Source of the DNA: Streptomyces sp. 549
Lineage (GTDB): Bacteria > Actinomycetota > Actinomycetes > Streptomycetales > Streptomycetaceae
Reading direction: 5' to 3'
NCBI RefSeq assembly: GCF_030124175.1
Contig: NZ_JASKMT010000001.1
Coordinates: forward strand, 1 to 64,000
Length of the DNA: 64,000 nucleotides
Below the pieces are notes generated by a model. It searched no databases, was not told where the DNA came from, and worked only from the letters and a program-made list of their open reading frames with translations. Made by a program: the position numbers and the translations under genes. Below are positions 10,439-62,333 of the stretch, one piece after another (position 1 is the stretch's first letter; every line of letters starts with the position of its first letter).

Positions 10439-11455
10439 CTAACGGGATCCGGCCGCGCTCCAGTCGTTCTCGACGACCGGGCTGCGGCCGATGAGCGGAA
10501 GCCACCAGGAACGGTGCTCGGAGTACCAGCGGACGGTCTCCCGGATTCCGGCCGCGAAGGGGATCCGCGGCTCCCAGCCGAGTTCGCGCCGGATACGGCT
10601 GGAGTCGAGGAGGTAGCGGCGATCATGGCCGGGGCGGTCGGGCACGGTCTCCTTCAGAGACCGCGGCAGGCCGAGTTCGTCGAGCACGAGGTCGGCGAGT
10701 TCATCGACGCTGGCCTCCACACCCGTGCCGACGTGGTAGATCTCGCCGGGCGTTCCCTTCAGGAGGACGGTCTCCACGGCCGCGCAGTGGTCCTGGACGT
10801 GGATCCACTCCCTGCGGTTGCCACTGGAGGCGTACACGGGCAGACGCCGACCGTCGAGCGCCCGGGTCGTGAACAGGGGGATGACCTTCTCGGGGAACTG
10901 GTGACTGCCGTAGTTGTTGGCGCAGTTGGTGATCGTCACGGGCAGGCCGTACGTCTCGTGGTAGGCCCGGACCACATGGTCGGCCCCGGCCTTGCTGGCG
11001 TTGTAGGGGGTGCGGGGGCGGTAGGGGCTCGTCTCGGTGAACATCTCGTCGGAGTCGAGGGCGAGGTCTCCGTACACCTCGCAAGTGGATATGTGGTGGA
11101 AGCGTTCGATGCCCACCGCTCGGCACGCCTCCAACAACCCCTGCGTACCGAGGACGTTAGCGCGGAAGAAGCGCCCGGGGTCCAGTACGGCAAGGCTGTT
11201 GTGCGACTCCGCGGCGAAGTTGACGACCTTCTCGGTCCGGTGCTCGGCGAGGAGTTCACGTACGAGCGCTTCGTCCCCGATGTCCCCCTGGACGAAGACC
11301 ACACGGTCGGCGAGGTCCTCCAAGTTGGAGAGCGAGCCGGCGTAGGTGAGCGCATCGAGGGCGACCACGGTGTCATCGGGGTACCGGCGCAACCAGTGCC
11401 GGACGAAGTGCGATCCGATGAAGCCTGCCGCGCCCGTGACGAGTATCGAGGTCAT
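10439..11455 (-). CDS. rmlB: dTDP-glucose 4,6-dehydratase
   Basis: The 338-residue extended short-chain dehydrogenase converts dTDP-glucose to dTDP-4-keto-6-deoxyglucose, the first committed intermediate of all deoxysugars in this cluster. The NAD site (TGAAGFIGSHFVRHW) is at the N terminus. The STCEVYGDL and YNASKAGADH segments carry the catalytic Thr and the Tyr-x-x-x-Lys pair, and NNYGSHQFPEK is the usual substrate-binding segment. Length is normal. It stands alone among decayed genes at the left edge of the cluster, with TCGA-type heptads about 45 bases upstream. Its partner rmlA is nearly 50 kb away near the right edge. Confidence 0.93.
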   Translation of the reverse strand: MTSILVTGAAGFIGSHFVRHWLRRYPDDTVVALDALTYAGSLSNLEDLADRVVFVQGDIGDEALVRELLAEHRTEKVVNFAAESHNSLAVLDPGRFFRANVLGTQGLLEACRAVGIERFHHISTCEVYGDLALDSDEMFTETSPYRPRTPYNASKAGADHVVRAYHETYGLPVTITNCANNYGSHQFPEKVIPLFTTRALDGRRLPVYASSGNRREWIHVQDHCAAVETVLLKGTPGEIYHVGTGVEASVDELADLVLDELGLPRSLKETVPDRPGHDRRYLLDSSRIRRELGWEPRIPFAAGIRETVRWYSEHRSWWLPLIGRSPVVENDWSAAGSR

Positions 11456-11496
11456 GGCCGCAGGCTAGTGTCCCGGGGCGGGGTCCTTGTCCGAGG

Positions 11497-11514
11497 TCGA
11501 GCGGGATTCGACCG
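11497..11514. promoter_or_regulatory. Candidate SARP heptad pair upstream of rmlB
   Basis: TCGAGCG and TCGACCG are spaced exactly 11 bp apart (GGAT spacer), the form bound by DnrI/ActII-ORF4-type SARPs. The pair lies about 45 bp upstream of rmlB, though it reads in the opposite direction to that gene. Confidence 0.45.
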
Positions 11515-11796
11515 GCCCCCGAGACGCGCTCGTCCGCCATGACAGGGCCTGCAAGGAGCGCGGTTCGGAAGTAGTGCCGCACCCCCTCGGCAGAGGCGCT
11601 TACCCGCCTGCCGCACCATCAACATCCTTTCCCACAAGCCGACATCGGATGGTTCCGTCCGTTCGGAGGTGCCTGGACCGAGCCGTCTGAACTTCACGAG
11701 AACTCCAGCGAGATGGCACGTGTGTACACCTCCCGTCGACCACCGGTTGCGCGTCACCGGCCGCCTTACGGGCCGCCGAGCGGCGAACCCCGCGCG

Positions 11797-12390
11797 TCAG
11801 TGCCCGTGCCCGGCGGACTCCCCGCCCTCAGGCACGGATCCCTCAGGTGCCGCTCCCCCGGCGTGCACGGTGAAGGCGGCCGTACGGGACCTTCCCCTCG
11901 TACCGGAAGTCGAGGAAGAGGCGGTAGGCCCCCTTGCTCGGGGCGGTCGCGGTGAAGGAGACCTCCGGTCCCGGCTCCGTCCGCCCGTCGCCCGGTTCGC
12001 CGTTCGGGTGGACGACCGGGGTACGCCAGGTCGCCGGCGCGGAGCGCGACGAGGTGGCCGTACGCGCCGAGGTAGGGCTGGCGGTCGGTGACCGGCTTGC
12101 CGTACTTCTCGACCCCCAGCTTGAGCTCCCGGGCGCAGCGATCCGTCGAGCGTCACCTCGTATCCGTCGACGGTCACCGTCCGCTCGGCCTCCGGAAGCG
12201 GCTCGGGGCGCGCTTCGCCCGATACGGCGAGATCCGCGCCGAGGGTGACGCCCTCGGCGTTCTTCACGTCGGGGGGCGAAGTCGGCGAAGACCCGGTAGC
12301 CGCCGGCCTCCGGAAGCTCGACGGGGGCGGACCAGTTGCCGTCGGCGGCCCGCTCGGGGTGCAGATGCCGGTAGGTGGTGAGGTCGCGGA
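11797..12390 (-). pseudogene. Degenerate exported-protein gene (C-terminal part)
   Basis: The frames alternately carry pieces of one protein: YRHLHPE..DGNWSAPVELPEAGGYRVFADFAP, then AEGVTLGADLAVSG, then GVEKYGKPVTDRQPYLGAYGHLVALR, then a VHPNGEPGDGRTEPG and YRLFLDFRYEGK ending. These segments belong to a common Streptomyces secreted beta-rich protein family with conserved His residues. Three or more frame changes are needed to read it. It has been joined head to tail with an XRE regulator fragment. Confidence 0.55.

Positions 12391-13321: not shown

Positions 13322-13337
<16 letters not shown>
12821..13337 (+). pseudogene. Small integral membrane protein, frameshifted
   Basis: From ATG 12821 about 35 residues read well (MTYALAPSAEVAPARDAARI...SVSTAVMG). 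Then a one-base shift near 12922 is needed to continue into VLVAAAVPLGSATGVPVAFAV and three further hydrophobic segments (to about 13225). The restored product would have four membrane helices and about 140 residues, like small actinobacterial DoxX/DUF-type membrane proteins; no function is clear. The tail after 13260 overlaps a hairpin and the convergent uvrA-like gene. A sequencing slip is possible. Confidence 0.45.
13273..13298. terminator. Hairpin at the 3' end of the uvrA-like gene
   Basis: GCGGGTCCACCG and CGGTGGACCCGC pair perfectly around a two-base centre, followed on the minus side by pyrimidine-rich DNA. It lies just beyond the stop codon of the UvrA-like gene. Confidence 0.7.
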
Positions 13338-15604
<2,267 letters not shown>

Positions 15605-21330: not shown

Positions 21331-22287
21331 ATGTCCGCGAATGGCAGGGTCGTCGTCCTGGGCGGCACGGGGTTCGTCGGACGGCACGTGTGCGCGGCGT
21401 TGGAGTGCCGCGGCACGGAGGTGGCCGTCGTGGCCCGCAGGCCGCCCGATCACGAGGTCGCGGGCCCGTTCCTCGCCCTCGACCTCGCGCGGCGGCCGGC
21501 GCGGGAGTCCGCCGAGCGGCTGGACGCCCTGGCGCCGTTCGCCGTCGTCAACTCCACCGGCAGCATCTGGGGCAACACCGACGCGCAGATGTGGGAGGCC
21601 GCAGCCGCCCCGACCCTGCGGCTGCTGGACATCCTCGCGCTGATGGAGAGCCGGCCACGGCTGGTGCACCTGGGTTCGGTACTGGAGTACGGCCGGATGC
21701 GGGTCGGGACAGCGTCGGACGTCGCCGCGCCCGCACGTCCGACCAGCGCGTACGGCCGGGCGAAGCTAGCGGCGACCCGGGCCGTGCTGGAGCGGATCGG
21801 GGCGGGTGAGCTGGAGGGCATGGTATTGCGCATCGCCAATCTGGCGGGCCCCCGCAGCCCCGACGTCAGCCTGCTGGGCCGGGTGGCCGGCCAGTTGTGG
21901 GCGGCGGGCGGGCAGCCGGCGGCGGTGGAACTGGATCCGTTGCTGGCCCACCGGGACTACGTGGACGTACGCGACGTCGCCGACGCGGTCGTGGCGGCCG
22001 TGGACTCGAAGGTCTCCGGCGAGATCGTCGACATCGGCAGCGGCCACAGCACCTCCGTCCGCACGCTGGTCGACATGCTCATCGAGCGCAGCGGCCTGCC
22101 CGCGTCGGTACGGGAGCGGTCGGACGTGGGGATCCAGCACTCCGCCGAGGAATGGTCGCTCGTGAACACCGCGCCGGCCGAGCACCTGCTCGGCTGGCGC
22201 TCCCGTCGGTCCCTCGCCGAGGCGGTGGACGGATTCTGGCTCGAGTTCGTCGAGCGCCAAGGCCCGCGGGACGAACACCACCCCTAA
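21331..22287 (+). CDS. NDP-hexose 4-ketoreductase (NAD-dependent epimerase/dehydratase family)
   Basis: The 318-residue extended SDR has an N-terminal [16 protein letters not shown] cofactor motif and a [13 protein letters not shown] catalytic Tyr-x-x-x-Lys segment. It resembles 4-ketoreductases of deoxyaminosugar pathways (DnmV/EvaE-like), which set the C4 hydroxyl stereochemistry. Clustering with aminotransferase and N-methyltransferase genes supports this. It starts at ATG 21331 and is followed after 22 bases by the aminotransferase on the same strand. A distinct second enzyme of this type is encoded at 55.2-56.1 kb; which enzyme serves which sugar cannot be decided from sequence. Confidence 0.85.
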
Positions 22288-24753: not shown

Positions 24754-25557
24754 CTAACGGCCCACGGCCTTCGCGTAGCGGCGGATGGACAGCGGTACGA
24801 AGATCACGAGGATCAGCGCCACCCACAGGAAGGCCGAGAGAACGGGGTATTGAAGCGGCCACACCTCCGGCTCCGGCCGGCCGGCCGGGATGTTGCCGAA
24901 CAGCTGCCGGCACGCCTCGACGACCGCGGACACCGGGTTCCAGTTGGCGACGACCTGGAGGACCTTGGGCAGCCCCTCACTCGGCACGAACGAGTTCGAG
25001 ATGAAGGTGAGCGGCAGCAGCACCATGAGCATCACGTTGCCCAGCACCTCGGGCGACTTCGCGGTCAGACCGATCGCCGCGGTGATCCAGGAGGCCGCGT
25101 AGGCGAAGAGGAACAGCAGCAGGAAGGCGAGCGCGGCGTCCAGGAAGTCGGACCGGATGCGCCAGCCCATCAGCAGACCGGTCAGCGACATCAGAATAAT
25201 GACGAGAACGTTGTTCACCGCGTCGCCGCTGGTCCGGCCGACCAACACCGCGGACTGCGAGATGGGCAGCGACCGAAACCGGTCCACGAGGCCGAGCTTC
25301 ATGTCGTGAGCGATGCCCACGCCGGTGTTGGAGGCGGTCAGCAGCATCGTCTGGGTCAGGATTCCGATGATCATGAACTCGCGGTAGTTCGAGCCGTGCA
25401 CGTCGATCGCGCTGCCGAACACGAACCCGAAGAGAAGCGCGAAGGCGATGGGAGCGGCGCTGGTGAACACCACGATGTCGGGGTTGCGAAGGTTCTTGAG
25501 AACGTTGCGCTTGGTGAGGACGAGGCCGTCCTCGACGGCCTGGGTGAAGGCGCTCAA
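24754..25557 (-). CDS. ABC-2 type permease, DrrB-like drug exporter subunit
   Basis: The 267-residue membrane protein has six predicted helices and the ABC-2 family layout of DrrB. Hydrophobic segments include VVFTSAAPIAFALLFGFVFG near the start and ALAFLLLFLFAYAASW in the middle. It forms an exporter with the ATPase encoded just upstream; the two genes overlap by four bases (ATGA), indicating coupled translation. DrrAB exports daunorubicin and doxorubicin, so export of the aromatic glycoside is the likely role. Confidence 0.9.
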   Translation of the reverse strand: MSAFTQAVEDGLVLTKRNVLKNLRNPDIVVFTSAAPIAFALLFGFVFGSAIDVHGSNYREFMIIGILTQTMLLTASNTGVGIAHDMKLGLVDRFRSLPISQSAVLVGRTSGDAVNNVLVIILMSLTGLLMGWRIRSDFLDAALAFLLLFLFAYAASWITAAIGLTAKSPEVLGNVMLMVLLPLTFISNSFVPSEGLPKVLQVVANWNPVSAVVEACRQLFGNIPAGRPEPEVWPLQYPVLSAFLWVALILVIFVPLSIRRYAKAVGR

Positions 25558-26531
25558 CGGACCTGCTCCTCGATCTTGCCGCCGGCCGCCGCCGTGTCGG
25601 AGTTCTCGGTCAGGGCGAGGAAGACCTCGTCCATGCTGGGCCGGCGCAGGGTGACTCCCGCCAGCCGGATGTTCTGCTGATCGAGCAGCCGGATCGCGGA
25701 GACCAGCGTGGCCGGGCCGTCGCTGACCGGCACGATCACCCGCTTGTCCGCCTCCTCCACCGTGGGCTCGCCCGAGGCGAGTTCGGCGAGGAGGGCAGCG
25801 GCGTGCCGGGCGTCCTCGGCGCTGCCCGTGGTCAGTTCGATGCGCTCTCCGCCGACCCGGTCCTTGAGTACGTCGGGGGTGCCTTCGGCGATCACCCGGC
25901 CTCGGTCGATCACGGTGATCCGGTCGGCCAGCTGGTCGGCCTCCTCCAGGTACTGGGTCGTGAGCAGCAGAGTGCTGCCACCGCTCACCAGCTCGCCGAT
26001 CACCTCCCAGACGGCCATCCGGCTGCGGACGTCAAGCCCGGTCGTCGGCTCGTCGAGGAAGAGCACCTCGGGCTTGGAGACCACCGCGCAGGCGAGGTCC
26101 ACGCGGCGGCGCATCCCCCCGGAGTAGCCCTTGACCTGGCGGTCGGCGTTCTCGGTGAGGTCGAAGCGCTCCACCAGTTCGTCGGCACGCCTGCTGCTCT
26201 CGGTGACGCCGAGGTGGTAGAGCCTGCCGATCATCCGGAGGTTCTCCCGGGCGGTGAGGTCCTCGTCGACCGCCGCGTACTGGCCGGAGAGGCCGATCTT
26301 GCGGCGGAGCTGGACCGCGTCGCTCCGCACGTCCAGGCCCGCGACGGTCGCCCGTCCAGCGTCGGCGCGCAGGAGGGTGGCGAGGACGCGCACGGTCGTG
26401 GTCTTGCCGGAGCCGTTCGGCCCGAGAAGTCCCAGCACGGATCCTTCGGGGACGGTCAGGTCCACCCCGTCCAGGGCGGTATGGGTGCCGAACTTCTTTC
26501 TGAGCCCCTCGGCGACGATCGCGTTGGTCAT
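25554..26531 (-). CDS. ABC transporter ATPase, DrrA-like drug exporter subunit
   Basis: The 325-residue ATPase has Walker A LLGPNGSGKTT (near residue 40), signature YSGGMRRRVDLACA and Walker B VLFLDEPTTGLD, followed by the C-terminal extension of the daunorubicin-resistance DrrA subfamily (VTLRRPSMDEVFLALT). It powers export through the DrrB-like permease. The start is ATG 26531 with a GGAGGACC ribosome binding site. The stop overlaps the permease start. Resistance would therefore combine efflux with the UvrA-like and glycosylase proteins encoded elsewhere in the cluster. Confidence 0.92.
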   Translation of the reverse strand: MTNAIVAEGLRKKFGTHTALDGVDLTVPEGSVLGLLGPNGSGKTTTVRVLATLLRADAGRATVAGLDVRSDAVQLRRKIGLSGQYAAVDEDLTARENLRMIGRLYHLGVTESSRRADELVERFDLTENADRQVKGYSGGMRRRVDLACAVVSKPEVLFLDEPTTGLDVRSRMAVWEVIGELVSGGSTLLLTTQYLEEADQLADRITVIDRGRVIAEGTPDVLKDRVGGERIELTTGSAEDARHAAALLAELASGEPTVEEADKRVIVPVSDGPATLVSAIRLLDQQNIRLAGVTLRRPSMDEVFLALTENSDTAAAGGKIEEQVR

Positions 26532-26926
26532 TGGTCCTCCATGAGCGGTAGCTGCGCGGTGTGATCGCAGCGGCCGGCCGGTGGTCTCCCGGCGGGCCGG
26601 ACCCAACGTAGGAACGATCGCGGCCAGCTTCGGTCCCCGATTCTCCGGGCCGGCACGGTGGGACGGTTTCCGGCCGAAGGTGTCCCGCAGACACGTCGGA
26701 AGCAGACCGGAAGGCACTCCCTATCCTGACTGTCGGCTTGTCAAGCAGCGTGAGTAGCACGCAAGTTGTGAGATCAAGGCGGAATCCAGACTTCCCTGAG
26801 TGATGGCTCGCACCCTGGCACCGAGCCAATCGCGCGGTGACCGGAGCGCCCCCGGCGTCCGGCCCCCGGCGTCCCCACCAGTTGTCGTCGAAGCGGTCCA
26901 CAGCCGACCGAAAACGGAGCCAGCAG
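26532..26926. other. Divergent intergenic region between exporter and secreted protein gene
   Basis: About 395 bases hold the divergent promoters of the exporter genes (leftward) and the secreted protein gene (rightward). It is less GC-rich near 26720-26800, including a CACGCAAGTTGTGAGATCAA stretch. I see no clear TCGA-type heptads here and no tandem operator that I can name. Confidence 0.4.
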
Positions 26927-30234: not shown

Positions 30235-30238
30235 CCAG

Positions 30239-48000: not shown

Positions 48001-48964
48001 CCACGGCCGCTGCGGCCTCCCGGCGGTCGGCCTCGTCGCCCCGGCACCGGTCGGGCAGCAGCGGCAGCACGGAGCTGCGGCGGGCGACCACGGACGGCTG
48101 TCTGCGGGCCAGGACGCTGAGGCTGTTGCCCGGTCCGGCCTCGACCAACAGACAGTCGTGGTCGGCCAGCAGCCCGGTGAGTGTGGGGGCGAAATGGACG
48201 GTCGCGGCGGCCTGCCCGGCCCAGAAGTCCGGGTCCACCGCGTCCTGGTCGGTGAGCAGGCCCCGGGTGTAGGCGGAGTACAGGGGCAGTTGCGGGGGCC
48301 GCAGTCCGGTGGCCCGCCAGTCCGGCAGGGAGGCCGTCACCGCCTCGGCGACCAGGGGGCTGTGGAACGCCTGCCGGGCGCGTACCTTGCGGCAGATCAG
48401 CCCCCGTTCCTCCAGCGTCCGAGCTGCCTGCGCCAGCGGGTTCTCCGCGCCGGCCAGCAGCAGTTGCCGGGGGGCGTTGACCGCCGCCAGGTGCACATCA
48501 GCGTTCAGGAGGTCGGCGACGTCGGCCTCCGAGGCCGCCACGGCGAGCATCCCGCCCGGTGGGGTGTCGGCGAACTGCCGGACGCGGTCGCGCAACAGCC
48601 GGACCCCGTCGGTGAAGTCGAGCACTCCGGCCAGGGTGGCGGCCGCGAGTTCCCCGACGCTGTGTCCGATCAGGGCCACCGGGCGCACGCCGCGCTCCAG
48701 CAGCATCCGGCCGAGCGCGTGGTTCACCGCGTACAGCAGGGGCTGGGCCACCGACACGTCGTCGTACAGGGGTGAGGGGCGCTCGGCCAGCCACTCGGAC
48801 CGCAGCGCGGGTCCGGCGTCCTCGTACAGCGTGAAGGCGCGGTCCATCCAGGCGGTGAACGACTCGTCGTGGCCGTAGAGGCCCGCCGCCATCCTGGGGT
48901 GCTGGGCGCCCTGTCCGGCGAACATCAGGGCGACGGGCCGGGTGGTCGGGGGCAAGAGCGGCAT
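45005..48964 (-). CDS. Type I PKS loading protein: AT-KSQ-AT-ACP
   Basis: The 1319-residue protein has a first AT (residues about 10-300, [10 protein letters not shown] near 103, QAFHSP near 200), then a KS (from about 365) whose active site reads [11 protein letters not shown] with Gln for Cys (near 516) while His motifs ([17 protein letters not shown]) stay. A second AT ([14 protein letters not shown] near 971, [10 protein letters not shown] near 1071) and ACP (GLDSRMAV, Ser near 1273) follow. KSQ domains decarboxylate malonyl- or methylmalonyl-ACP to give acetyl or propionyl starters. The extra N-terminal AT is unusual and may serve the downstream PKS or the type II ACP. ATG 48964 has an AGGAAAGG site. 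It is followed after 50 bases by the extending module gene. Confidence 0.92.
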
Positions 48965-49009
48965 CCACGTACCTTTCCTGGGATTCGGCCACACCGTGCG
49001 TCCCGGCGT

Positions 49010-49038
49010 TCGAGCCGCGCCTGAGAACGGTTCGAACC
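49010..49038 (+). promoter_or_regulatory. Candidate SARP site between type I PKS and KSIII genes
   Basis: TCGAGCC-N4-CTGAGAA-N4-TCGAACC has its outer heptads 22 bp apart (two helical turns). It lies in the only intergenic region between the divergent PKS and KSIII-led operons, about 125 bp before the KSIII start and 46 bp from the PKS start. Confidence 0.5.
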
Positions 49039-49161
49039 GCAGGGGCTCCATCCGGCCTTGAGCCGGTTTTGACGTCGCCGCCACAGACTCCGGGCCCGGG
49101 GGCCGTATCCGGCTTCACCCGCCAGCGACGATCCGGCCGAGGGTGCACGAGGGAGGATCCG

Positions 49162-50235
49162 GTGAACGTCACGGACGTGTTCATTTCCGGGGTCGGGCTT
49201 CATCTGCCGCGTGCCCTGCCCGTCGCCGAGGTGGCGCGGCAGGGTCTCGCGGACGAGCGGACGATCCGGCGCAGCCGGATGCGTTCGGTGTGCGTCGGCG
49301 AGGAGTCGGGGCCCGAGATGGCGGTTCGAGCGGCCCGGGAGGCGTTGCGCTCGGCGGGAGCCGACCGGGAGGACATCGGCCTGGTCCTGCACGCCAGTAC
49401 GTACTACCAGGGGCACGACCTCTGGGCGCCCGCCTCCTATGTCCAGCGGGAGGCGGTGGGCGGCTCCTGCCCGGCGATGGACGTCGGGCAGCTATCCAAC
49501 GGCGGTATGGCGGCGATGGAGTTGGCGGTCGCCGCGCTGCTGTCCGGCCGGGCTCCGCACAGTGTTCTGATCACCACGGGCGACCGGTTCGCCCTGCCCG
49601 GGTTCGACCGCTGGGAGACCGACCCGGGGACGGTGTGCGGGGACGGCGGAACGGCGGCCGTCCTGTCCACCGCCGACGGCTTCGCCCGCCTGCGCAGCCT
49701 GGTGACGGTCTCCGATCCGACGCTGGAGTCGATGGGCCGGGGCGACGACCCGTTCGGTACGACGCCGCTGGGCGTCCGCTCCCCGGTCAGTGTGGCCGGG
49801 CACCGGGCGCGACTGGTCGAGCAACTCGGCATGGGCGAGCTCATCGACCGCCTTCAGGTCGGGCAACGTGAGGCGTTCGAGCGGGCGTTGGCGGACGCGG
49901 ACGTGAAGGCCGACGGCATCGCCTGGTTCGTGTTGCCCCATCTGGGCCGCCCGAAGATGGACTTCCAGTTCTTCGACGCACTGGACATCGACCCCGACCG
50001 GAGCACCTGGTCGTGGGGGTCCGGGGTGGGGCACCTAGGTGCGGGCGATCCCTTCGGGGGGCTGGCCCATCTGGTGCGGACCGGCGCCCTGGCCCCCGGA
50101 CAGTTCTGCGCCCTCGTCAGCGCCGGCGGAGGTTTCGCCTGGTCGGTGGCGGTCCTGGAGATCGTCGGCCTCCCGACAGCCGGGACGCCCTCCCCTTCTG
50201 CCCCTGAGACAAGGAAGTCGAGCGCATCGTCATGA
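49162..50235 (+). CDS. KSIII-like acyltransferase with Ser at the active site (DpsC/CerJ type)
   Basis: The 357-residue thiolase-fold protein resembles KSIII starter enzymes (FISGVGLHLPRALPV, then LVLHASTYYQGHDLWAPASY). The nucleophile region reads DVGQLSNGGMAAME, with Ser112 where FabH-type enzymes have Cys. DpsC in daunorubicin biosynthesis has the same Cys-to-Ser change and primes the PKS with propionyl; CerJ-type relatives are acyltransferases. It therefore probably transfers the starter acyl group to the aromatic PKS. GTG 49162 follows GGGAGGATCC. The stop overlaps the next gene (ATGA), starting a plus-strand operon of five genes. Confidence 0.88.
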   Translation: MNVTDVFISGVGLHLPRALPVAEVARQGLADERTIRRSRMRSVCVGEESGPEMAVRAAREALRSAGADREDIGLVLHASTYYQGHDLWAPASYVQREAVGGSCPAMDVGQLSNGGMAAMELAVAALLSGRAPHSVLITTGDRFALPGFDRWETDPGTVCGDGGTAAVLSTADGFARLRSLVTVSDPTLESMGRGDDPFGTTPLGVRSPVSVAGHRARLVEQLGMGELIDRLQVGQREAFERALADADVKADGIAWFVLPHLGRPKMDFQFFDALDIDPDRSTWSWGSGVGHLGAGDPFGGLAHLVRTGALAPGQFCALVSAGGGFAWSVAVLEIVGLPTAGTPSPSAPETRKSSASS

Positions 50236-51791
50236 CAACCCGTGAAACCCCGCCCGACACCGGGCCCGACCCGAGCTCGAACGCCCCGGGCGAGAACGCG
50301 CTGACGGCGTTCCACGAGCAACGGCCTCAGTGGGCCCCGGCGCCTGCCGGTGGCGGTGCCGCCTCGGCCTGGCTTCCGGCGGCCGCACCGACCCACGCAC
50401 CCGTCGAGCACGCGGTGGTGGAGGTGCCGATGGACTACACGGACCCCGCGGGCCGCAGGCTCTCGATCGCCGTCAGCCGGCTCCGGGCCAAGGACCCGGA
50501 GCGGCGTCGCGGCATCCTGCTGCTGGTCAACGGAGGCCCCGGGGGCTACTTCGGGCTCGGTCGGGGCTTTCCCGCCGCGCTGGCGCACACCCGGCTCACC
50601 GAGGTCTACGACCTGATCGGCTTCGACCCGCGCGGTACCGGGGACTCCACGCCACTGCGCGGCGAGATCACCCCGACGGCCGCGCCGTTCGACTCACGCC
50701 CCCCGGACTCCGCCTTCGCGGTGATCTCCGAGGACTTCCGCATCCGCGAGGAAGGCAACCTGCGGGCGGGCGGCGAGCTGCGTCCGCACGTCAACACGCC
50801 CAACACCGCCCGGGATATGGACGTGATCCGCGCGGTGCTCGGCGAGGACAGCCTCAACTACCTTGGCTACACCTACGGCACCTACCTCGGCGCGGTCTAC
50901 GGAGCGCTGTTCCCCGACCGGCTGGACCGCAGCGTCCTGGACTCCTGTGTGCATCCCGACTGGTCCTGGCGCGAGCAGGCCATGGCCCAGGGGCGCGCCA
51001 ACCGGGACAACGTGGAGGCCTGGGCCGCCTGGACCGCGCGGCGCGAGGGCCACTTCGGGCTCGGGACCTCCGGCGAGCAGGTGCTCGCCGCGGTCGAGGC
51101 GGCCGCCGCCGCGATCACCACCACCCCGGGCGCCGTCCCGCTGCGCTCGCTGTTCGACGGGGCGATGGGGTCCCGCTCGGCCGACCGCTCGAAGTGGCGG
51201 GAGCTGGCGGACCTGGTGGCCGACGTCCGGACGGGCGGCGCCGAGGCGGCCGGGAAGTGGCTCGCGAACGAGAAGGTGTGGCCGCCGAGCGAGACCGAGG
51301 GCGAGACCCGGTGCGGGGTGCTCGACGCGGTGACGGTCGAGAAGGACTGGCCGACGGACCTGGAGGTCTACTACGAGGACATGCGCCGCTACCGGGAACA
51401 CTTCCCGTACGGCTACGGCGTGATGCGCGCCCAGACCTGGGTGGGGGCGTTCCGTACGTTCACCCCGCCGGAGCGGCCCGTGGAACTGTCCGCCCGCGGC
51501 TACCCGGCCGGGCTGGTCGTGCACGCCGAGGGCGACCCGACCGACCACTACGAGGGCGGGGTCGCGATGGCCGCCCGGCTCGGGCACCGGCTGATCACGG
51601 TCGCCGACTCGGGCCAGCACGAGATCTATGGCTTCGTCCGCAACCCGGACGTGGACAGGCTCGTCGAGGGCTACTTCGTCGACGGCTTCCTGCCCGACGA
51701 CACGTCCTGCCCGAGCACGGTGAGCCGCCCGGACGTTCCGGCGGACGGCGACGCCGGCTCAACCCCCCGTGAACAGAGGAAGGAATCATGA
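50232..51791 (+). CDS. Alpha/beta hydrolase, TAP-like family, with atypical nucleophile
   Basis: The 519-residue protein looks like tripeptidyl-aminopeptidase-type hydrolases: the oxyanion segment LLLVNGGPGGYFG, the nucleophile elbow, the acidic region VVHAEGDPTDHYEG and a late His in ADSGQHEIYGF. The elbow reads GYTYGTYLG, so Thr214 replaces the usual Ser of GYSYG. It may use Thr, have lost hydrolase activity, or work as a non-hydrolytic cyclase or transferase. It overlaps the KSIII gene and the FAD monooxygenase gene by four bases on each side, so it is firmly in the biosynthetic operon. Confidence 0.82.
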   Translation: MTTRETPPDTGPDPSSNAPGENALTAFHEQRPQWAPAPAGGGAASAWLPAAAPTHAPVEHAVVEVPMDYTDPAGRRLSIAVSRLRAKDPERRRGILLLVNGGPGGYFGLGRGFPAALAHTRLTEVYDLIGFDPRGTGDSTPLRGEITPTAAPFDSRPPDSAFAVISEDFRIREEGNLRAGGELRPHVNTPNTARDMDVIRAVLGEDSLNYLGYTYGTYLGAVYGALFPDRLDRSVLDSCVHPDWSWREQAMAQGRANRDNVEAWAAWTARREGHFGLGTSGEQVLAAVEAAAAAITTTPGAVPLRSLFDGAMGSRSADRSKWRELADLVADVRTGGAEAAGKWLANEKVWPPSETEGETRCGVLDAVTVEKDWPTDLEVYYEDMRRYREHFPYGYGVMRAQTWVGAFRTFTPPERPVELSARGYPAGLVVHAEGDPTDHYEGGVAMAARLGHRLITVADSGQHEIYGFVRNPDVDRLVEGYFVDGFLPDDTSCPSTVSRPDVPADGDAGSTPREQRKES

Positions 51792-55154: not shown

Positions 55155-56141
55155 CTACCGGCCGACCACCGGCCGGTGCTCCGCCCGGTCCATCCGCCAC
55201 ATGTCCCGCAGGGAGACGGCGAGGGTGGTCCGGGGCCGCCATTCGAGCAGTTGCGCGGCGCGTTGGATGTCGGCCCGGGTCCAGGCGCCGCCGAGGCTGC
55301 GGACCTCCTGGGCCCGTTCGTCGAGGATCTCGGCCGGGAAGCCGGCGGCGGTGACGAACAGCCGCACCAGGGTGGGCATGTCCACGGCCGTCCCGCTGCC
55401 GATGTTCACGGCCTGGCCGGTCGCCGTCGACTCGGCGGCCTTGAGGACCGCTTCGGCGACATCGCGTACGTCCACGAAGTCGCGCCGCGCGTCGCCCAGG
55501 GTGACCGGCATCCGGTCACCGGTGGCCACCGCCTCACGCAACAGGGCGACGAGCTTGCCGGGAAAGCTCTCGGGCGACGGGTGGGGGCCGCTGACGTTGG
55601 CGACCCGCAGGACCAGCCCGTCCGCCGCACCGGTCCGGGCGGCTGCCAGCACCGCCTGCGAACCGGCCAGTTTGCTCCGGGTGTACGGGGTCACCGGGCG
55701 CGGATGGAGCGCCTCGTCCATGACGGTGCCCGCGGAGACCTCGCCGTACTCGTGCATCGTGCCGATGTGGACGAGGCGGACGCGTCCCTCCACGGTGCCC
55801 AGGGCCGCGAGGAGGCGGCAGACCAGACCGAGGTTCAGGTCCGCCAGGTCCTCGTCGGTCCTGGCCCAGCCGTCGGTGGCGTTCGCCGCGTCGGTGGCGT
55901 TGACCACGACGTCCACCCGGTGCTCGCGCAGCAGCCGGCCGATGCTCTCGGGCGAGGCGCGGGCGAGGTCGAGCCCGACGAACCGGTGGGTGGCGACGTG
56001 AGGTCGGGGCCGACGGGCTACGGCGAGGACGTAGTGGCCGCGCCGGGCGGCCAGCTCGCAGACGTGTCTGCCGAGCCAGCCGGTGCCGCCGAGGACGGCC
56101 GTCCGGAGTGCGCCGGGCGCGCCCGGTCGGGGCGTGGGCAC
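55155..56141 (-). CDS. NDP-hexose 4-ketoreductase, second copy
   Basis: The 328-residue extended SDR has the cofactor motif VLGGTGWLGRHVCELAARRG, a GTMHEYGEVS segment and YTRSKLAGSQAV with the catalytic Tyr-x-x-x-Lys. Its overall plan is like the enzyme encoded at 21.3-22.3 kb but the sequences differ widely, so the two probably reduce C4 of different intermediates. The start is GTG 56141, four bases after the glycosyltransferase stop, so both are in one minus-strand unit. Confidence 0.85.
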   Translation of the reverse strand: MPTPRPGAPGALRTAVLGGTGWLGRHVCELAARRGHYVLAVARRPRPHVATHRFVGLDLARASPESIGRLLREHRVDVVVNATDAANATDGWARTDEDLADLNLGLVCRLLAALGTVEGRVRLVHIGTMHEYGEVSAGTVMDEALHPRPVTPYTRSKLAGSQAVLAAARTGAADGLVLRVANVSGPHPSPESFPGKLVALLREAVATGDRMPVTLGDARRDFVDVRDVAEAVLKAAESTATGQAVNIGSGTAVDMPTLVRLFVTAAGFPAEILDERAQEVRSLGGAWTRADIQRAAQLLEWRPRTTLAVSLRDMWRMDRAEHRPVVGR

Positions 56142-56145
56142 GGCC

Positions 56146-57294
56146 CTAGGCCGTCCTGTACCGCAGGACGAGGTCCTCGAGGACCGGCACGACCGCGCCG
56201 GGCGAGGGCTGCCGGGCGATCTCCTCGCGCACCTCCTTGGCCCGCTTGGCGTAGCCGGTGTCCTCCAGCAGGGTGCGGCAGGAGTCCAGCAGGCTCTGCG
56301 GGGTCAGGTCGGCGGGCGGCAGGTGGCGCACCGCACCGAGGTCGGCCAGCCGGGCGATGGCCTCCAGGGGCTTACCGCGGCCGGGGACGACGACCTGGGG
56401 GATGCCCTGGGCGAGGCAGGCCATCATGGTGCCGGGGCCGCCGTGGTGGACGGCCGCGTCGCAGCCGGGCAGCACGGAGGTCAGCGAGATCCAACCCGCG
56501 GCGACGACCTTGTCCGGGAGCGTGCCGAGCTTGTCGACCAGGTGGTCGGCGACCGCGACGACCAGCTCCGCGTCCAGGGACGCGAGGGCCTGGATCATCT
56601 GGCCGAGCATCGGGATGCCACCGATCTGCGGCTGGACGGACCCCAGGGTTACCAGCAGCCGGGGCCGGTTGCGGGGCTCGTGGACCCAGCCGGGCACGGC
56701 ACCCGGCTCACCGAAGGGGACATACCGTACGGGCTGCGCCCCGGGCGCCGGATCGCCGAGCGCCGGGGGGCAGTTGTCGAGGACCAGGGCGGGCGGGGGC
56801 AGCCTGTCCAGCCCCAGGCGCTCCAGTTCCGGGGCCATTTCCCGCTCCACCGCGTCGGCGACAGGCAGATCGCCGGGGCCGACGATGTGCTTGACCCATG
56901 GGACGCCGTGAATCCCGGCGGCGATGGCCGGGGCCGCGAAGGAGTACGAGTCGGTGATCACGAGGTCGGGCCGCCAGCGCCCGACGAGCTCGACGGTGGC
57001 GTCGACGGTCCGCGCGGCCAGCCGGCCGAAGCCGGCACCGACGCCCGCGGCCATGTCGGCGTCGTTGTCGGGGACGCGGACCGGCCGGCCCTCCCGGTCC
57101 AGGGCCATCACCTCGCCCATGTCCAGGGGGCCGTGCACCGGCGTCATGGCGAGACCGGAGCCGCGCACGGCGGATTCGAAGCTTTCGGGGACCGTCACGA
57201 GCACCTCGTGACCGGCGGCGCGCAGCGCCCAGGCGATGGGCACGACCGGGAAGTACAGCGGGTGGGCAGGCCCTGTGGCCACGAGAATCTTCAT
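56146..57294 (-). CDS. Glycosyltransferase, UGT/MGT family (second of two)
   Basis: The 382-residue GT-B enzyme begins KILVATGPAHPLYFPVVPIAW and carries the donor-site signature AAVHHGGPGTMMACLAQGIPQVV near the C terminus. It belongs to the same GT1 antibiotic glycosyltransferase family as the enzyme at 23.5-24.6 kb but is clearly a separate paralogue. It is downstream of a 3,5-epimerase-like gene and upstream of a 4-ketoreductase gene, suggesting the three handle one sugar. No activator protein gene is seen. A TCGAGCG heptad with a partner 11 bp away lies just upstream. Confidence 0.9.
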   Translation of the reverse strand: MKILVATGPAHPLYFPVVPIAWALRAAGHEVLVTVPESFESAVRGSGLAMTPVHGPLDMGEVMALDREGRPVRVPDNDADMAAGVGAGFGRLAARTVDATVELVGRWRPDLVITDSYSFAAPAIAAGIHGVPWVKHIVGPGDLPVADAVEREMAPELERLGLDRLPPPALVLDNCPPALGDPAPGAQPVRYVPFGEPGAVPGWVHEPRNRPRLLVTLGSVQPQIGGIPMLGQMIQALASLDAELVVAVADHLVDKLGTLPDKVVAAGWISLTSVLPGCDAAVHHGGPGTMMACLAQGIPQVVVPGRGKPLEAIARLADLGAVRHLPPADLTPQSLLDSCRTLLEDTGYAKRAKEVREEIARQPSPGAVVPVLEDLVLRYRTA

Positions 57295-57378: not shown

Positions 57379-57981
57379 TCAGCGGGCGAGTCGGGCATCC
57401 AGCTCCAGGCACTGTTCGTAGTCGGGCAGCACCCCCGACTCCAGGGCCTGTGCGAGGCTCTGGGCCACCCGGTCGCGTTCCGAGACGACCGGTTCGATGT
57501 CCTCGGGCAAGGACAGCGCCAGGTCGGGGTCGTCCACCGACAACGCCAGTTCGTTCTCCGGGGAGTAGGCCAGGGACAGGGTGTAGGCCATCACCGTGTC
57601 GTCCTCCAGCGCGACGAAGGCGTGGCCCAGACCGACGGGGAAGTACACCGCCCGGAAGTCCACCGGGTCGAGGACGACGGTGGCGTGGCGGCCGAAGGTC
57701 GGCGAGCCACGCCGCAGGTCCACGATGATGTCGAGCGCCCGGCCCCGGGGGCAGTAGACGTACTTCGCCATACCCGGCGGGGTGCGGGTGAAGTGCACCC
57801 CGCGGACGACGCCCCGGCGGGAGCGGCTGTGGCTGATCTGCTCCACCGGGAACAGCCGATGCCCGGTCTGCCGGACGAACGCCTCCTCCTGGAAAGGCGA
57901 CACGAACGCGCCGCGTGGGTCCGCGAACACCTGCGGGGTGAAGACGTGCGCGCCGACTACACCCAGTTCCTTGGCTTCCAT
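57379..57981 (-). CDS. dTDP-4-keto-6-deoxyhexose 3,5- or 5-epimerase (RmlC/EvaD-like)
   Basis: The 200-residue cupin-fold protein follows the RmlC layout: DPRGAFVSPFQEEAFV, then RRGVVRGVHFTRTP, VYCPRGRALDIIVDLRRGSPTFG and FPVGLGHAFVALEDD. In deoxyaminosugar pathways such enzymes (EvaD-type) often epimerize only C5, giving L-sugars such as vancosamine. ATG 57981 has a GGAGGAACGG site. It is first of a minus-strand group with a glycosyltransferase and a ketoreductase, and divergent from the DNA glycosylase gene. Confidence 0.88.
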   Translation of the reverse strand: MEAKELGVVGAHVFTPQVFADPRGAFVSPFQEEAFVRQTGHRLFPVEQISHSRSRRGVVRGVHFTRTPPGMAKYVYCPRGRALDIIVDLRRGSPTFGRHATVVLDPVDFRAVYFPVGLGHAFVALEDDTVMAYTLSLAYSPENELALSVDDPDLALSLPEDIEPVVSERDRVAQSLAQALESGVLPDYEQCLELDARLAR

Positions 57982-58190
57982 GAGCCGTTCCTCCGCGTTC
58001 CCCCGTGAGCCGGTCGGGCGACGGTCGTGCCCGCGCAGATGCTGGGTCCGCTGTCTGGAGCGCGGGTGGGGAATCACTGGAGGCGTTCACCGGGGGCTCG
58101 CCGAGGTGATCGCGGACAGTGGATGACCGCGATCCCGGCTATCGTCCGGCACAGTTCCCAGCCTCGCGTGCGCTCCGTAGGAAGGACACC

Positions 58191-60057: not shown

Positions 60058-60936
60058 CTAGATGTCGGCGAGCTCCTTGGCGATGGCCATGACGTACTGC
60101 CCGTAACGGGACTTGGAGAGCCGGACGCCGAGGCTGTGGCACTCGTCGCTGGTGATGTAGCCCATGCGCAGGGCGACCTCCTCCACGCAGGCGATGCGAA
60201 CGCCTTGCCGCTCCTCCAGCGTCCCGACGTACTGTCCGGCCATCAACAGCGACTCGGGGGTACCGGTGTCCAGCCAGGCGAAGCCCCGGCCGAGGTCGAC
60301 CAGCCTGGCGCGCCCGCGCTCCAGGTACCAGCGGTTCACATCAGTGATCTCCAGTTCGCCGCGCGCCGACGGCCGGACGTTCTTGGCGACGTCCACAACG
60401 GAGTTGTCGTAGAAGTACAGCCCGGTGATGGCCCGGTTGGACCGCGGGTGCGTGGGCTTCTCCTCGATGGACACGAGCCGGCCGTCGGCGTCGACCTCGC
60501 CCACACCGTAGCGCTCGGGATCGTTCACCGGATAGCCGAACAGGACGCATCCGGACACGTCCCGGCTGTTCTCCGTGAGCACGGAATAGAACCTGTGCCC
60601 GTGAAAGATGTTGTCACCCAGAATCAGGGCGACCGAGCTGTCACCGATATGGTCGGCGCCGATCACGAATGCTTCCGCGAGTCCGTTGGCCTCGATCTGT
60701 TCGGCGTATTCGATCTGAAGCCCGAGATGTGATCCGTCGCCCAGCAGCCGCCGGAACTGCGGGAGATCATCGGGGGTCGAGATGACCAGGATCTCCCGGA
60801 TGCCGGCCAGCATCAGAATGCTCAGTGGGTAGTAGATCATCGGTTTGTCGCCGACCGGCAGTAGCTGCTTGGAAACGGCGATGGTCACGGGCTGGAGTCT
60901 GGTTCCGGATCCGCCCGCAAGAATAATCCCCTTCAC
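60058..60936 (-). CDS. rmlA: Glucose-1-phosphate thymidylyltransferase
   Basis: The 292-residue nucleotidyltransferase makes dTDP-glucose from glucose-1-phosphate and dTTP. It has the N-terminal [17 protein letters not shown] loop, [18 protein letters not shown] and the [12 protein letters not shown] substrate segment, and normal length. The start GTG 60936 follows GAGAGGTG and matches the usual RmlA N terminus; an upstream ATG at 60966 adds residues not found in the family. With rmlB at 10.4 kb it supplies the precursor of both sugars. Confidence 0.93.
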
Positions 60937-61000
60937 CGGGTGACACCTCTCGATCACTGGTTGCACAACGCCGCAGGGCGATCAGTGCACCATGGGACAT

Positions 61001-61029
61001 TCGAGCCGGTCTCGATGTGCGCTCGAATC
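61001..61029 (+). promoter_or_regulatory. Candidate SARP binding site, three TCGA heptads at 11-bp period
   Basis: TCGAGCC-N4-TCGATGT-N4-TCGAATC starts at 61001, 61012 and 61023, each beginning with TCGA. It is the clearest heptad repeat in the window, 87 bp before the C-methyltransferase start and also upstream of the divergent rmlA gene. A fourth TCGAGTG at 61041 is out of phase. Confidence 0.65.
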
Positions 61030-61115
61030 CGGGGTCCTTCTCGAGTGAGCGGGCGTGGCACCCCGTCAAGTTCCTGTCGAGCAATTTTCGAGAACCCGCA
61101 CCTACGGTCACCGCC

Positions 61116-62333
61116 ATGACTTCATGCCGTATCTGCCAAGGCGTGGTGCAGGAGTTCTTCGACTTCGGCCGACAGCCTCTCTCCGACGCCTTCCGCAGGC
61201 CCGAGGACAGCTCGGAGGAGTTCTTCTACCGGCTCGCCGTGGGCGTCTGCGAACAGTGCACCATGGTTCAGCTGATGGAAGAGGTGCCCCGCGAACGGAT
61301 GTTCCGCGCGGACTACCCGTACCACTCCTCGATGTCCTCGGTGATGCGGGACCACTTCACCCGCACCGCCCACCAACTGCTCGCGGCGGGCGGGCAGGGT
61401 GAGGACCCCTTCGTGGTGGAGATCGGCTGCAACGACGGGGTCATGCTCAGGACCGTCGCCGAACAGGGAGTCCGGCACCTGGGCGTGGACCCGTCCCGGG
61501 ATGTGGCCGAGCTGGCCGCCGGCAAGGGCGTCCGAGTGAAGATCGACTTCTTCCAGGAGTCGACGGCCACCGCCATCCGCGCGACCGACGGACCCGCCGA
61601 CGTGATCTACGCGGCGAACACCATCTGCCACATCCCCTACCTGGACTCGGTGTTCCGCGGGGTCGACGCCCTGCTGGCCCCCGACGGCATCTTCGTGTTC
61701 GAGGACCCCTACCTCGGGGACATCGTCGAGCGCACCAGCTTCGACCAGATCTACGACGAGCACTTCTACCTGTTCTCGGCCTCGTCCGTACGGGCCACCG
61801 CGCGCAGGTTCGGATTCGAGCTCGTCGACGTCGAGCGCCTCCCGGTGCACGGCGGCGAGGTGCGCTACACCATCGGCCGCGAGGGGCGTCGGGAGCCCGC
61901 AGCGGCCGTCGACGCACTGATCGCCGAGGAGCGCAAGCGCCAGATCGTCGACATCACGATCCTGGAGAACTTCGCGGTCGAGGTGAAGCGGAACTGCGAG
62001 GCGCTCACCACGCTGCTGGCCCAGTTGCGCGAGCAGGGCCAAACGGTCGCCGCGTACGGCGCGACGGCGAAGAGCGCGACCGTCGCCAACTACTGCGACA
62101 TCGGCCCGGACCTCGTTCCGGCGGTCTTCGACTCGACGGCGGCCAAGCAGGGCCGGCTCACACCCGGGACGCATATCCCGGTCCGGCCGATGGAGGAGTT
62201 CTCCGCTCCGTACCCCGACTACGCGCTGCTCTTCGCGTGGAACCACGCGGACGAGATCATCGCCAAGGAGCAGGAGTTCCGCGCCCGGGGCGGGAAGTGG
62301 ATCGTGTACGTCCCCGAGGTGAAGATCATCTGA
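61116..62333 (+). CDS. NDP-hexose C-3 methyltransferase (EvaC/TylCIII-like)
   Basis: The 405-residue protein has the three-part layout of sugar C-methyltransferases. The N-terminal zinc-binding part has Cys pairs in TSCRICQG and VGVCEQCTM. A SAM-binding domain follows (VVEIGCNDGVMLRTV, near residue 95), then a C-terminal Rossmann-like domain (VAAYGATAKSATVANYC). EvaC/TylCIII enzymes add a methyl at C3 of dTDP-4-keto-deoxysugars, giving branched sugars such as vancosamine or mycarose. With the aminotransferase and N-methyltransferases, a dimethylvancosamine-type sugar is inferred. ATG 61116 is at the family N terminus, and SARP-like heptads lie upstream. Confidence 0.92.
   Translation: MTSCRICQGVVQEFFDFGRQPLSDAFRRPEDSSEEFFYRLAVGVCEQCTMVQLMEEVPRERMFRADYPYHSSMSSVMRDHFTRTAHQLLAAGGQGEDPFVVEIGCNDGVMLRTVAEQGVRHLGVDPSRDVAELAAGKGVRVKIDFFQESTATAIRATDGPADVIYAANTICHIPYLDSVFRGVDALLAPDGIFVFEDPYLGDIVERTSFDQIYDEHFYLFSASSVRATARRFGFELVDVERLPVHGGEVRYTIGREGRREPAAAVDALIAEERKRQIVDITILENFAVEVKRNCEALTTLLAQLREQGQTVAAYGATAKSATVANYCDIGPDLVPAVFDSTAAKQGRLTPGTHIPVRPMEEFSAPYPDYALLFAWNHADEIIAKEQEFRARGGKWIVYVPEVKII

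What the first reader, a model, noticed from the sequence alone, without database searches (positions are those of the whole stretch)
10439..62333. Hybrid type I/type II PKS cluster for a DNA-reactive, doubly aminoglycosylated aromatic polyketide
The window combines KS-alpha/CLF/ACP, ActIII-type KR and ARO/CYC with two type I PKS genes, a KSIII-like acyltransferase, genes for two aminosugars (one C-methylated), DrrAB, a UvrA-like protein and an AlkZ-like glycosylase. Established knowledge: hedamycin (pluramycin class) uses type I PKS priming of a type II PKS and carries angolosamine and N,N-dimethylvancosamine. The gene set fits that class, but the fully reducing starter module predicts a different, alpha-methyl-branched side chain, so the compound may be a new or unassigned congener.
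Basis: partly seen in the sequence, partly recalled or inferred. Interest (0 to 1): 0.85.

Follow-up and report, generated by a model that had tools for sequence, protein, structure and literature searches.

The report
Kidamycin-type antibiotic gene cluster, recently transferred
This stretch of a Streptomyces genome is a complete set of genes for a known kind of DNA-damaging antibiotic (the kidamycin branch of the pluramycins) that appears to have moved recently between distant Streptomyces species, and it carries a little-noticed enzyme that may explain how the drug's side chain gets its double bonds.

Summary
In detail: every gene class named is present. The class call (pluramycin) holds too, but the "different, alpha-methyl-branched" side chain is not new. 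The loading PKS is AT(QAFH)-KSQ-AT(VAGH)-ACP and the second module KS-AT(YASH)-DH-ER-KR-ACP: the architecture and AT motifs printed for Kid13/Kid14 of the kidamycin/rubiflavinone C-1 cluster (PMC10646177). I expect kidamycin with rubiflavinone-type congeners; no product was measured.

Beyond the kid text I read: (1) the cluster is 96-97% identical in DNA to one in S. rubiginosohelvolus, whose rpoB region is only 90% identical: recent transfer. (2) The dual-AT loading protein is a fusion; in 7 of 9 clusters the first AT is a separate neighbouring gene. (3) A dehydrogenase closest to 6u1v accompanies the ER in 10 of 11 ER-containing clusters or genomes. (4) That ER carries an unusual Gln: 12 of 12 here, 0 of 28 controls. 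(5) The cluster lacks the ccr gene found in 6 of 8 relatives, and an IS630 pair sits near its SARP gene.

The parts
10439..11455 (-). dTDP-glucose 4,6-dehydratase (RmlB)
   Evidence: TIGR01181 408 bits, over its cut-off; 98% identical in S. rubiginosohelvolus
13322..15604 (-). UvrA-like protein (HedH11-like by family)
   Evidence: TIGR00630 710 bits, under its cut-off of 730; Pfam UvrA DNA-binding domain 26 bits
15658..15984 (-). ABM-family oxygenase (kid27-like by order)
   Evidence: PF03992
15996..17480 (-). NDP-hexose 2,3-dehydratase (kid26-like)
   Evidence: PF03559 538 bits
17715..18539 (-). NmrA-type SDR
   Evidence: PF05368
18619..19593 (+). WYL-domain regulator
   Evidence: PF13280
19678..20328 (-). 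flavodoxin-fold reductase
   Evidence: PF02525
20457..21170 (-). methyltransferase, probably sugar N-methyltransferase (kid24-like)
   Evidence: Methyltransf_25; role by order with kid
21331..22287 (+). sugar SDR, probably 4-ketoreductase (kid23-like)
   Evidence: PF01370
22310..23428 (+). NDP-sugar 3-aminotransferase (kid22-like)
   Evidence: PF01041 370 bits
23496..24689 (-). glycosyltransferase 1 (kid21-like, C8 angolosamine)
   Evidence: PF06722/PF21036; role by order
24754..26717 (-). DrrB and DrrA exporter pair
   Evidence: PF01061, PF00005, PF13732
27460..27882 (-). SnoaL-like protein
   Evidence: PF13577
27870..28775 (-). SARP activator; likely GTG start at 28775
   Evidence: PF03704/PF00486; position of the start, chosen by me
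29110..31278 (.). two inverted IS630-type copies at the KR stop, 335 bp upstream of the SARP start; absent in S. rubiginosohelvolus
   Evidence: DDE_3 in both frames, under the Pfam cut-off in the second; breakpoints; self-comparison and distance
31279..32058 (-). type II PKS ketoreductase (kid20-like)
   Evidence: PF00106; 80-82% identical in the ISL-1, S. paradoxus and S. massasporeus clusters
32121..33086 (-). metallo-beta-lactamase-fold protein
   Evidence: PF00753
33083..33565 (-). AHSA1/cyclase-like protein (kid19-1-like by position)
   Evidence: PF08327
33747..35015 (+). KS-alpha (kid19-like)
   Evidence: PF00109/PF02801; 99% in S. rubiginosohelvolus
35012..36229 (+). chain length factor (kid18-like)
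   Evidence: PF00109/PF02801
36260..37447 (-). acyl-CoA-dehydrogenase-family protein, proposed side-chain desaturase (position of kid17 by numbering)
   Evidence: PF00441/02770/02771; best solved match 6u1v 458 bits, next 150 bits
37444..37701 (-). type II ACP (GFDSL)
   Evidence: PF00550; sequence
37776..38711 (-). aromatase/cyclase
   Evidence: PF10604/PF03364
38802..44954 (-). type I PKS module KS-AT(YASH)-DH-ER-KR-ACP (Kid14-like)
   Evidence: Pfam domains, sequence
45005..49084 (-). type I PKS loading protein AT(QAFH)-KSQ-AT(VAGH)-ACP (Kid13-like); exact start uncertain (49084 or 48964)
   Evidence: Pfam domains, sequence
49069..50235 (+). DpsC/CerJ-type KSIII-like acyltransferase
   Evidence: best solved matches daunorubicin PKS protein 4xs7 and CerJ
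50232..51791 (+). alpha/beta hydrolase (TAP-like)
   Evidence: PF00561/PF08386
51788..53035 (+). FAD monooxygenase (kid11-like); its last 17 residues differ from the S. rubiginosohelvolus copy because of the 123-bp extra stretch
   Evidence: PF01494
53121..54344 (+). cytochrome P450 (kid10-like, candidate side-chain epoxidase)
   Evidence: PF00067; role from PMC10646177
54350..55075 (+). methyltransferase, probably sugar N-methyltransferase (kid9-like)
   Evidence: Methyltransf_25; role by order
55155..56141 (-). sugar SDR at the kid8 position; far under the 4,6-dehydratase cut-off
   Evidence: PF01370; TIGR01181 67 bits against a cut-off of 365
56146..57294 (-). glycosyltransferase 2 (kid7-like, C10 vancosamine)
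   Evidence: PF06722; role by order
57379..58077 (-). NDP-sugar 3,5-epimerase
   Evidence: PF00908
58119..59288 (+). AlkZ-like DNA glycosylase with Q-A-Q (HedH4-like by family)
   Evidence: PF06224 263 bits; motif in the sequence
60058..60966 (-). NDP-glucose synthase (RmlA)
   Evidence: PF00483
61017..62333 (+). sugar C-methyltransferase (kid4-like, vancosamine)
   Evidence: PF08484/PF08421

Best explanation
This is a kid-type pluramycin cluster. Shown by sequence: the loading protein carries two ATs, a KS with Gln for the active Cys (KSQ) and an ACP; the next module carries a YASH (methylmalonyl-type) AT and DH, ER and KR domains. Inferred from the kid experiments: malonyl or ethylmalonyl is loaded and decarboxylated to an acetyl or butyryl starter, one methylmalonyl unit is added, the 2-methylacyl chain is passed on (by the DpsC-like KSIII, my inference) to KS-alpha/CLF, and the aromatic core is made, cyclised, oxidised and C-glycosylated with N,N-dimethylvancosamine and angolosamine. 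Expected product: kidamycin, with rubiflavinone-type congeners. My inference: the TcsD/HliR-like dehydrogenase (36260-37447) makes double bond(s) of the starter. DrrAB, the UvrA-like protein and the AlkZ-like glycosylase give self-resistance (by family, not tested). The block was exchanged recently between distant Streptomyces; direction unknown.
For: Domains and motifs equal those printed for Kid13/Kid14, including QAFH, VAGH and a methylmalonyl-type AT with ER. Gene order follows the kid numbering for the functions printed, with two exceptions told under evidence against. KSIII-like protein: best solved matches a daunorubicin PKS protein (4xs7, 321 bits) and CerJ. AlkZ-like family PF06224, 263 bits. 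Cluster DNA 96.2-96.9% identical to S. rubiginosohelvolus over about 47 kb against 90% for a 4-kb rpoB stretch and at most 79% for every matched piece of 150 bp or more from two 10-kb stretches. Dehydrogenase: best solved match 6u1v, E 2.9e-136; HliR, reported closest to TcsD, turns a 2-methylpent-2-enoyl thioester into the 2,4-diene (PMC4768178).
Against: The kid record ON993775 is in no collection here, so direct identity was not measured; that the kid numbers follow the gene order is assumed, as figures are not held. Two mismatches with the kid text: the gene at the kid8 position is far under the 4,6-dehydratase cut-off, and I found no separate gene for the third printed cyclase, Kid15-1. 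The ccr gene seen in 6 of 8 relatives is missing, which could shift the product mix. An IS pair near the SARP gene could change expression. No metabolite data. HliR rejects saturated substrates, which speaks against a simple 'ER saturates, then this enzyme re-oxidises' route unless the enzyme here differs.
Confidence: 0.88

Rival explanations
1. The cluster makes a genuinely different pluramycin congener, for example with a saturated sec-alkyl C2 side chain, because the ER is active and the chain is not desaturated.
For: ER nucleotide-binding motif (GGVGLAAIQ) intact; cluster-borne ccr missing; product not measured.
Against: Same module and AT motifs as kid, which gives an unsaturated side chain experimentally; the dehydrogenase gene is present and 98% identical to the S. 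rubiginosohelvolus copy.
Confidence: 0.08
2. It is a hedamycin cluster in the strict sense (HedT/HedU logic, two malonyl extensions without ER).
For: Same class; HedH4- and HedH11-like families present; Streptomyces 549 with a kid-like cluster was reported to make hedamycin as well as kidamycin, both bearing angolosamine and N,N-dimethylvancosamine.
Against: The second module has YASH and an ER, whereas HedU is described with a malonyl motif and the ER of Kid14 as additional to it, and HedF is a separate AT.
Confidence: 0.05
3. The cluster is silent or impaired in this strain because mobile elements have entered it.
For: IS630 pair 335 bp upstream of the SARP start, 650-bp and 1.7-kb extra stretches, and a 123-bp stretch that changes the end of the FAD monooxygenase.
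Against: 36 of 36 genes from rmlB to the C-methyltransferase align at 95-99% with the S. rubiginosohelvolus copy, nearly all over their full length; three of the four extra stretches lie between genes; the 335 bp next to the SARP gene still align.
Confidence: 0.2

Closest known systems
kid cluster, Streptomyces sp. W2061 (kidamycin, rubiflavinone C-1; ON993775)
   Same: AT-KSQ-AT-ACP loading protein with QAFH and VAGH, second module with methylmalonyl-type AT and ER, type II core, sugar genes in the order of the kid numbers
   Different: Kid8 and Kid15-1 have no clear counterpart by the printed function; direct identity not measured; whether kid has the four extra stretches or a ccr gene is unknown
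Cluster in S. rubiginosohelvolus JCM 4415 (L009; L071-L073)
   Same: 36 of 37 window genes queried are present at 95-99% protein identity; only the Methyltransf_19 gene 62562-63386, outside the block, is missing
   Different: Has a ccr gene beyond rmlB, cut by its contig end, and lacks the four extra stretches
hed cluster, S. griseoruber (hedamycin)
   Same: Hybrid type I/II priming; AlkZ-like HedH4, UvrA-like HedH11, DrrA-like HedH6
   Different: HedU with a malonyl motif and without the ER of Kid14; HedF a separate AT with QAFH
TcsD (FK506) and HliR (haliangicin) acyl dehydrogenases
   Same: The protein 36260-37447 is far closer to 6u1v (recalled to be TcsD) than to any other solved ACAD, and shares its EGGDD stretch
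   Different: Substrate and position of desaturation unknown here

Membership tests
kid-type pluramycin cluster | Loading protein AT1-1(QAFH)-KSQ-AT1-2(VAGH)-ACP in one protein | tested here: met
   definition
kid-type pluramycin cluster | Second module with methylmalonyl-type AT (YASH) and an ER | tested here: met
kid-type pluramycin cluster | Two glycosyltransferases, one C-methyltransferase and two N-methyltransferases in the order of the kid numbers | tested here: met
   against the functions printed; N-methyltransferase role is by family and order only
kid-type pluramycin cluster | Every printed kid function at its numbered place (not essential to the class) | tested here: inconclusive
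   Kid8 (4,6-dehydratase) and Kid15-1 (cyclase) have no clear counterpart at their places; differences of annotation are possible, and the kid record could not be seen
kid-type pluramycin cluster | Sequence identity to the kid record ON993775 | not testable with these tools
kid-type pluramycin cluster | Production of kidamycin or rubiflavinone C-1 | not testable with these tools
   needs LC-MS
hedamycin cluster (strict) | Second module with malonyl motif and without ER; HedF-type AT separate from the loading protein | tested here: not met
   definition
AlkZ-like (AZL) resistance glycosylases | AlkZ-like family with Q-x-Q motif, inside a biosynthetic cluster | tested here: met
   PF06224; QAQ in the sequence; motif; activity not tested
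TcsD/HliR-type acyl dehydrogenases | Closest to TcsD-like rather than beta-oxidation ACADs, catalytic Glu kept | tested here: inconclusive
   6u1v is the best solved match by about 300 bits and EGGDD is kept in 9 of 9 clusters, but that 6u1v is TcsD and that this Glu is the catalytic one are recalled, and no tree was made
DpsC-type KSIII acyltransferases | Closest to DpsC/CerJ among solved structures; nucleophile site without Cys | tested here: met
   321 bits to 4xs7; SNGG aligned with SNGG there; that this is the nucleophile site is recalled

The most novel reading that the evidence does not exclude
Kid-type clusters prime their aromatic PKS through a dedicated desaturation: a module with a full reducing loop and an unusual ER (Gln at the TAY-x site) builds a 2-methylacyl or 2-methylenoyl starter, and a TcsD/HliR-like dehydrogenase installs the double bond(s), so that the C4 and C6 side chains, and the later DNA-reactive epoxides, depend on this little-noticed enzyme. 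A fusion of two adjacent, often overlapping genes created the 'dual-AT' loading protein.
Probability: 0.4. Interest if true: 0.6.

Novelty: new member of a known kind. Interest (0 to 1): 0.42.

Why it matters
PMC10646177 states that the C2 substituents of pluramycins are closely related to their activity, and the parts of the two kid papers that I read do not explain how a module with an ER yields an unsaturated side chain. A dehydrogenase found with the ER in 10 of 11 cases, and an ER signature absent from 28 controls, make that question testable by one gene deletion. A block 96-97% identical in two Streptomyces whose rpoB region differs by 10% shows that a whole ~52-kb genotoxin cluster, resistance genes included, moves between distant species. 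The split and fused AT arrangements suggest where the dual-AT loading protein came from.

Tried and rejected
A new congener on the strength of the ER and the methyl branch: rejected, because kid has both. A non-Streptomyces host: rejected; G105, labelled 'same genus' as the window's genome, is 100% identical over 3.9 kb to the locus of Streptomyces sp. or43. That relatives lack the first AT: the first comparison covered only about 75% of the loading protein in one HSP, but the rest is a separate neighbouring gene. Solved-structure search for the AlkZ-like protein: no match at E 1e-5. Paper search for acyl-CoA dehydrogenase with hedamycin: 0 papers; finds for 'dehydrogenase' and 'kid17' in the main texts of the two kid papers: 0; their supplements could not be read. 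Paper search for 6U1V: 0, so its identity as TcsD stays recalled; searches for TcsD papers gave only mentions of TcsD itself besides the HliR paper. Searches for S. rubiginosohelvolus papers led nowhere for the cluster (listing, passages). Structure prediction, trees, and scans of viral contigs, padloc and phrogs were not run.
Full report
What is there. The window is positions 1-64000 of contig 1 of an unnamed 6.0-Mb genome in 72 contigs. The genus is Streptomyces: a genome labelled 'same genus' (G105) is identical over 3.9 kb to the named locus of Streptomyces sp. or43.

The type I PKS pair. The loading protein (45005-49084, minus) reads AT with GHSVGE and QAFH, KS with VDTGQSS (Gln in place of the active Cys: KSQ), AT with GHSQGE and VAGH, ACP. 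The second protein (38802-44954, minus) reads KS (VDTACSS), AT (YASH), DH, ER, KR, ACP. PMC10646177 (parts 1-4 of 5 of its text read) describes Kid13 as AT1-1-KSQ-AT1-2-ACP with QAFH and VAGH, and Kid14 as carrying a methylmalonyl-type AT and an additional ER. It shows by knock-out of kid13 and by heterologous expression that this system supplies the side chains of kidamycinone and rubiflavinone C-1. PMC9452638 (parts 2 and 3 of 5 read) names functions for kid4, 5, 7-9, 15, 15-1, 16, 18-24, 19-1, 26 and 27; PMC10646177 for kid10, 11, 13, 14. Taken in numerical order these fit the window from right to left, with two exceptions: the gene at the kid8 position is far under the 4,6-dehydratase cut-off, the true 4,6-dehydratase being 10439-11455; and no separate gene was found for the cyclase Kid15-1. 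That numbers follow gene order is assumed; the figure was not seen. A saline-lake Streptomyces (549) with a cluster 97% similar to kid was reported to make kidamycin and hedamycin (PMC10609225, abstract and passages). I cannot exclude that the window comes from an already described kidamycin producer.

Relatives. A pattern-based scan of one genome for each of 84,980 species with the KSIII-like protein gave 52 loci. Cluster stretches of eight of these genomes were fetched. S. rubiginosohelvolus has 36 of the 37 window genes queried in the same order. Streptomyces sp. ISL-1, S. paradoxus and S. massasporeus have the same order from the uvrA-like gene to the C-methyltransferase gene, with an rmlB-like gene (48-50%) at the other end. 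Kitasatospora griseola, Streptomyces sp. or43, Actinocorallia populi and a Glaciihabitans MAG share the type I/II core in other surroundings (two stretches each, so their outer parts may be missed). Among 392 Streptomyces genomes sampled, 65 match the first AT at E 1e-70 and 5, the window included, at 67% identity or more; in the other four the open frame holding the AT (410-739 codons) is too short for both AT and KSQ.

Horizontal transfer. The block 10439-62448 aligns with S. rubiginosohelvolus at 96.2-96.9% in five pieces, about 47 kb in all, from the rmlB stop codon to 115 bp after the C-methyltransferase gene. Of five 10-12-kb stretches of the window's genome fetched I compared two: every matched piece of 150 bp or more in S. 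rubiginosohelvolus is at most 79% identical; a few shorter pieces reach up to 99%. A 4-kb stretch around rpoB is 90% identical to S. rubiginosohelvolus, 91% to S. paradoxus and S. massasporeus, 90% to K. griseola and 85-89% to Actinocorallia; in ISL-1 it gave no match, so 5 of 6 genomes answered. The hosts are thus distant and the block moved recently; direction unknown. An integrase gene (2982-4598) and a low-GC stretch lie left of the block; no link to the transfer was shown.

Fusion of the first AT. In the window and S. rubiginosohelvolus the first AT and the KSQ protein share one open frame of 1369 codons. In the other 7 of 9 clusters the QAFH AT is a separate gene directly upstream. In ISL-1, S. 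paradoxus and S. massasporeus the AT stop overlaps the KSQ start as ATGA; in Actinocorallia and Glaciihabitans the open frames overlap with uncertain starts; in K. griseola and or43 there is a short gap. The Gln of KSQ is kept in 9 of 9. The second AT reads VAGH in 6 of 9, RAGH in K. griseola, IAAH in Actinocorallia, and was not aligned in Glaciihabitans. The published dual-AT protein therefore looks like a fusion of two neighbouring genes, with HedF (separate, far from hedT, QAFH) another outcome of the same ancestry; that last step is inference.

The dehydrogenase and the ER. YASH is present in 12 of 12 second modules examined. An ER is present in 11 of 12; Sciscionella marina (L019) has none by motif. 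A close relative (67-98%) of the window's dehydrogenase is present in 9 of 11 genomes searched; Sciscionella has only a 31% match, and Actinomadura rubrisoli (L028) none at E 1e-40. With the window, the two occur together in 10 of 11 ER-containing cases, both are missing in one (L019), and L028 is the exception. In 9 of these 10 the gene was seen inside the cluster stretch (and the window); in S. tricolor (L011) it lies on another contig. The best solved match is 6u1v at 458 bits, the next 150; I recall 6u1v as TcsD of FK506 biosynthesis, which no call confirmed. HliR, reported closest to TcsD, converts a 2-methylpent-2-enoyl thioester to the 2,4-diene but does not take saturated substrates (PMC4768178, abstract and passages). 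By analogy the window enzyme could make the second double bond of the C6 (rubiflavinone) side chain; whether it also makes the first one after ER action is open. In 28 control ERs it is Tyr 18, His 6, Ile, Leu, Phe and Arg 1 each (the Arg beside an alignment gap), never Gln (controls are 28 of the 30 loci returned, from 99 matches). I recall that this position influences the stereochemistry of reduction; its meaning here is unknown.

Ethylmalonyl supply. S. rubiginosohelvolus carries the start of a ccr gene just beyond rmlB, cut by the contig end (best NCBIfam match TIGR01751, under its full-length cut-off); relatives of that 120-residue piece lie in the ISL-1, S. paradoxus, S. massasporeus, K. 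griseola and or43 stretches, so in 6 of 8, but not in the window, Actinocorallia or Glaciihabitans stretches. The window's genome keeps one ccr about 304 kb from the cluster. The C6 product may thus depend on the host's own enzyme; the kid insert expressed in S. albus, for which no ccr is listed, made rubiflavinone C-1.

Extra stretches. Two inverted IS630-type copies (29110-31278; 68% alike over 378 aligned positions) sit at the KR stop codon next to CTAG, 335 bp from the SARP start. A 650-bp stretch (59408-60057) has 20-bp near-terminal inverted repeats and no other full copy in the genome. A 123-bp stretch (52976-53098) replaces the last 17 residues of the FAD monooxygenase. A 1.7-kb stretch lies at 11549-13257. 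Which are insertions here and which deletions there was not decided, except that the IS pair is plainly an insertion.

Verdict. Real, complete as far as comparison shows, and of a known kind. The best-supported product is kidamycin with rubiflavinone-type congeners. The interest lies in the transfer, the origin of the fused loading protein, and the dehydrogenase/ER pair.

Noticed in passing
29110-31278: Two inverted IS630-type copies at the KR stop, 335 bp upstream of the SARP start; absent from the S. rubiginosohelvolus copy. They may affect expression of the activator.
   Followed up: partly
59408-60057: 650-bp extra stretch between alkZ and rmlA with 20-bp near-terminal inverted repeats, perhaps a non-autonomous element; apart from itself only a 42-bp match in the genome.
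   Followed up: partly
11549-13257: 1.7-kb extra stretch between rmlB and the uvrA-like gene; the one frame scanned (11843-13132) gave no Pfam match.
   Followed up: partly
52976-53098: 123-bp extra stretch that changes the last 17 residues of the FAD monooxygenase relative to S. rubiginosohelvolus.
   Followed up: no
1-4600: Low-GC (60%) stretch with a tyrosine integrase, an OLD-like ATPase/TOPRIM gene and a GntR-NUDIX gene beside the cluster.
   Followed up: no
L014; L089-L090: A kid-like type I/II core on a 392-kb contig of a Glaciihabitans MAG with a 3.3-Mb genome, an unexpected host; binning error not excluded.
   Followed up: no
L019: Sciscionella marina carries loading and extension modules in one frame, without ER motif and without a close dehydrogenase: a natural contrast to the kid-type clusters.
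   Followed up: partly
L018, L020, L021, L023: Another cluster type in four Streptomyces has a 53-56% identical dehydrogenase next to a KSIII-like gene and type I PKS pieces, with no close KS-alpha/CLF match in the stretch held.
   Followed up: no
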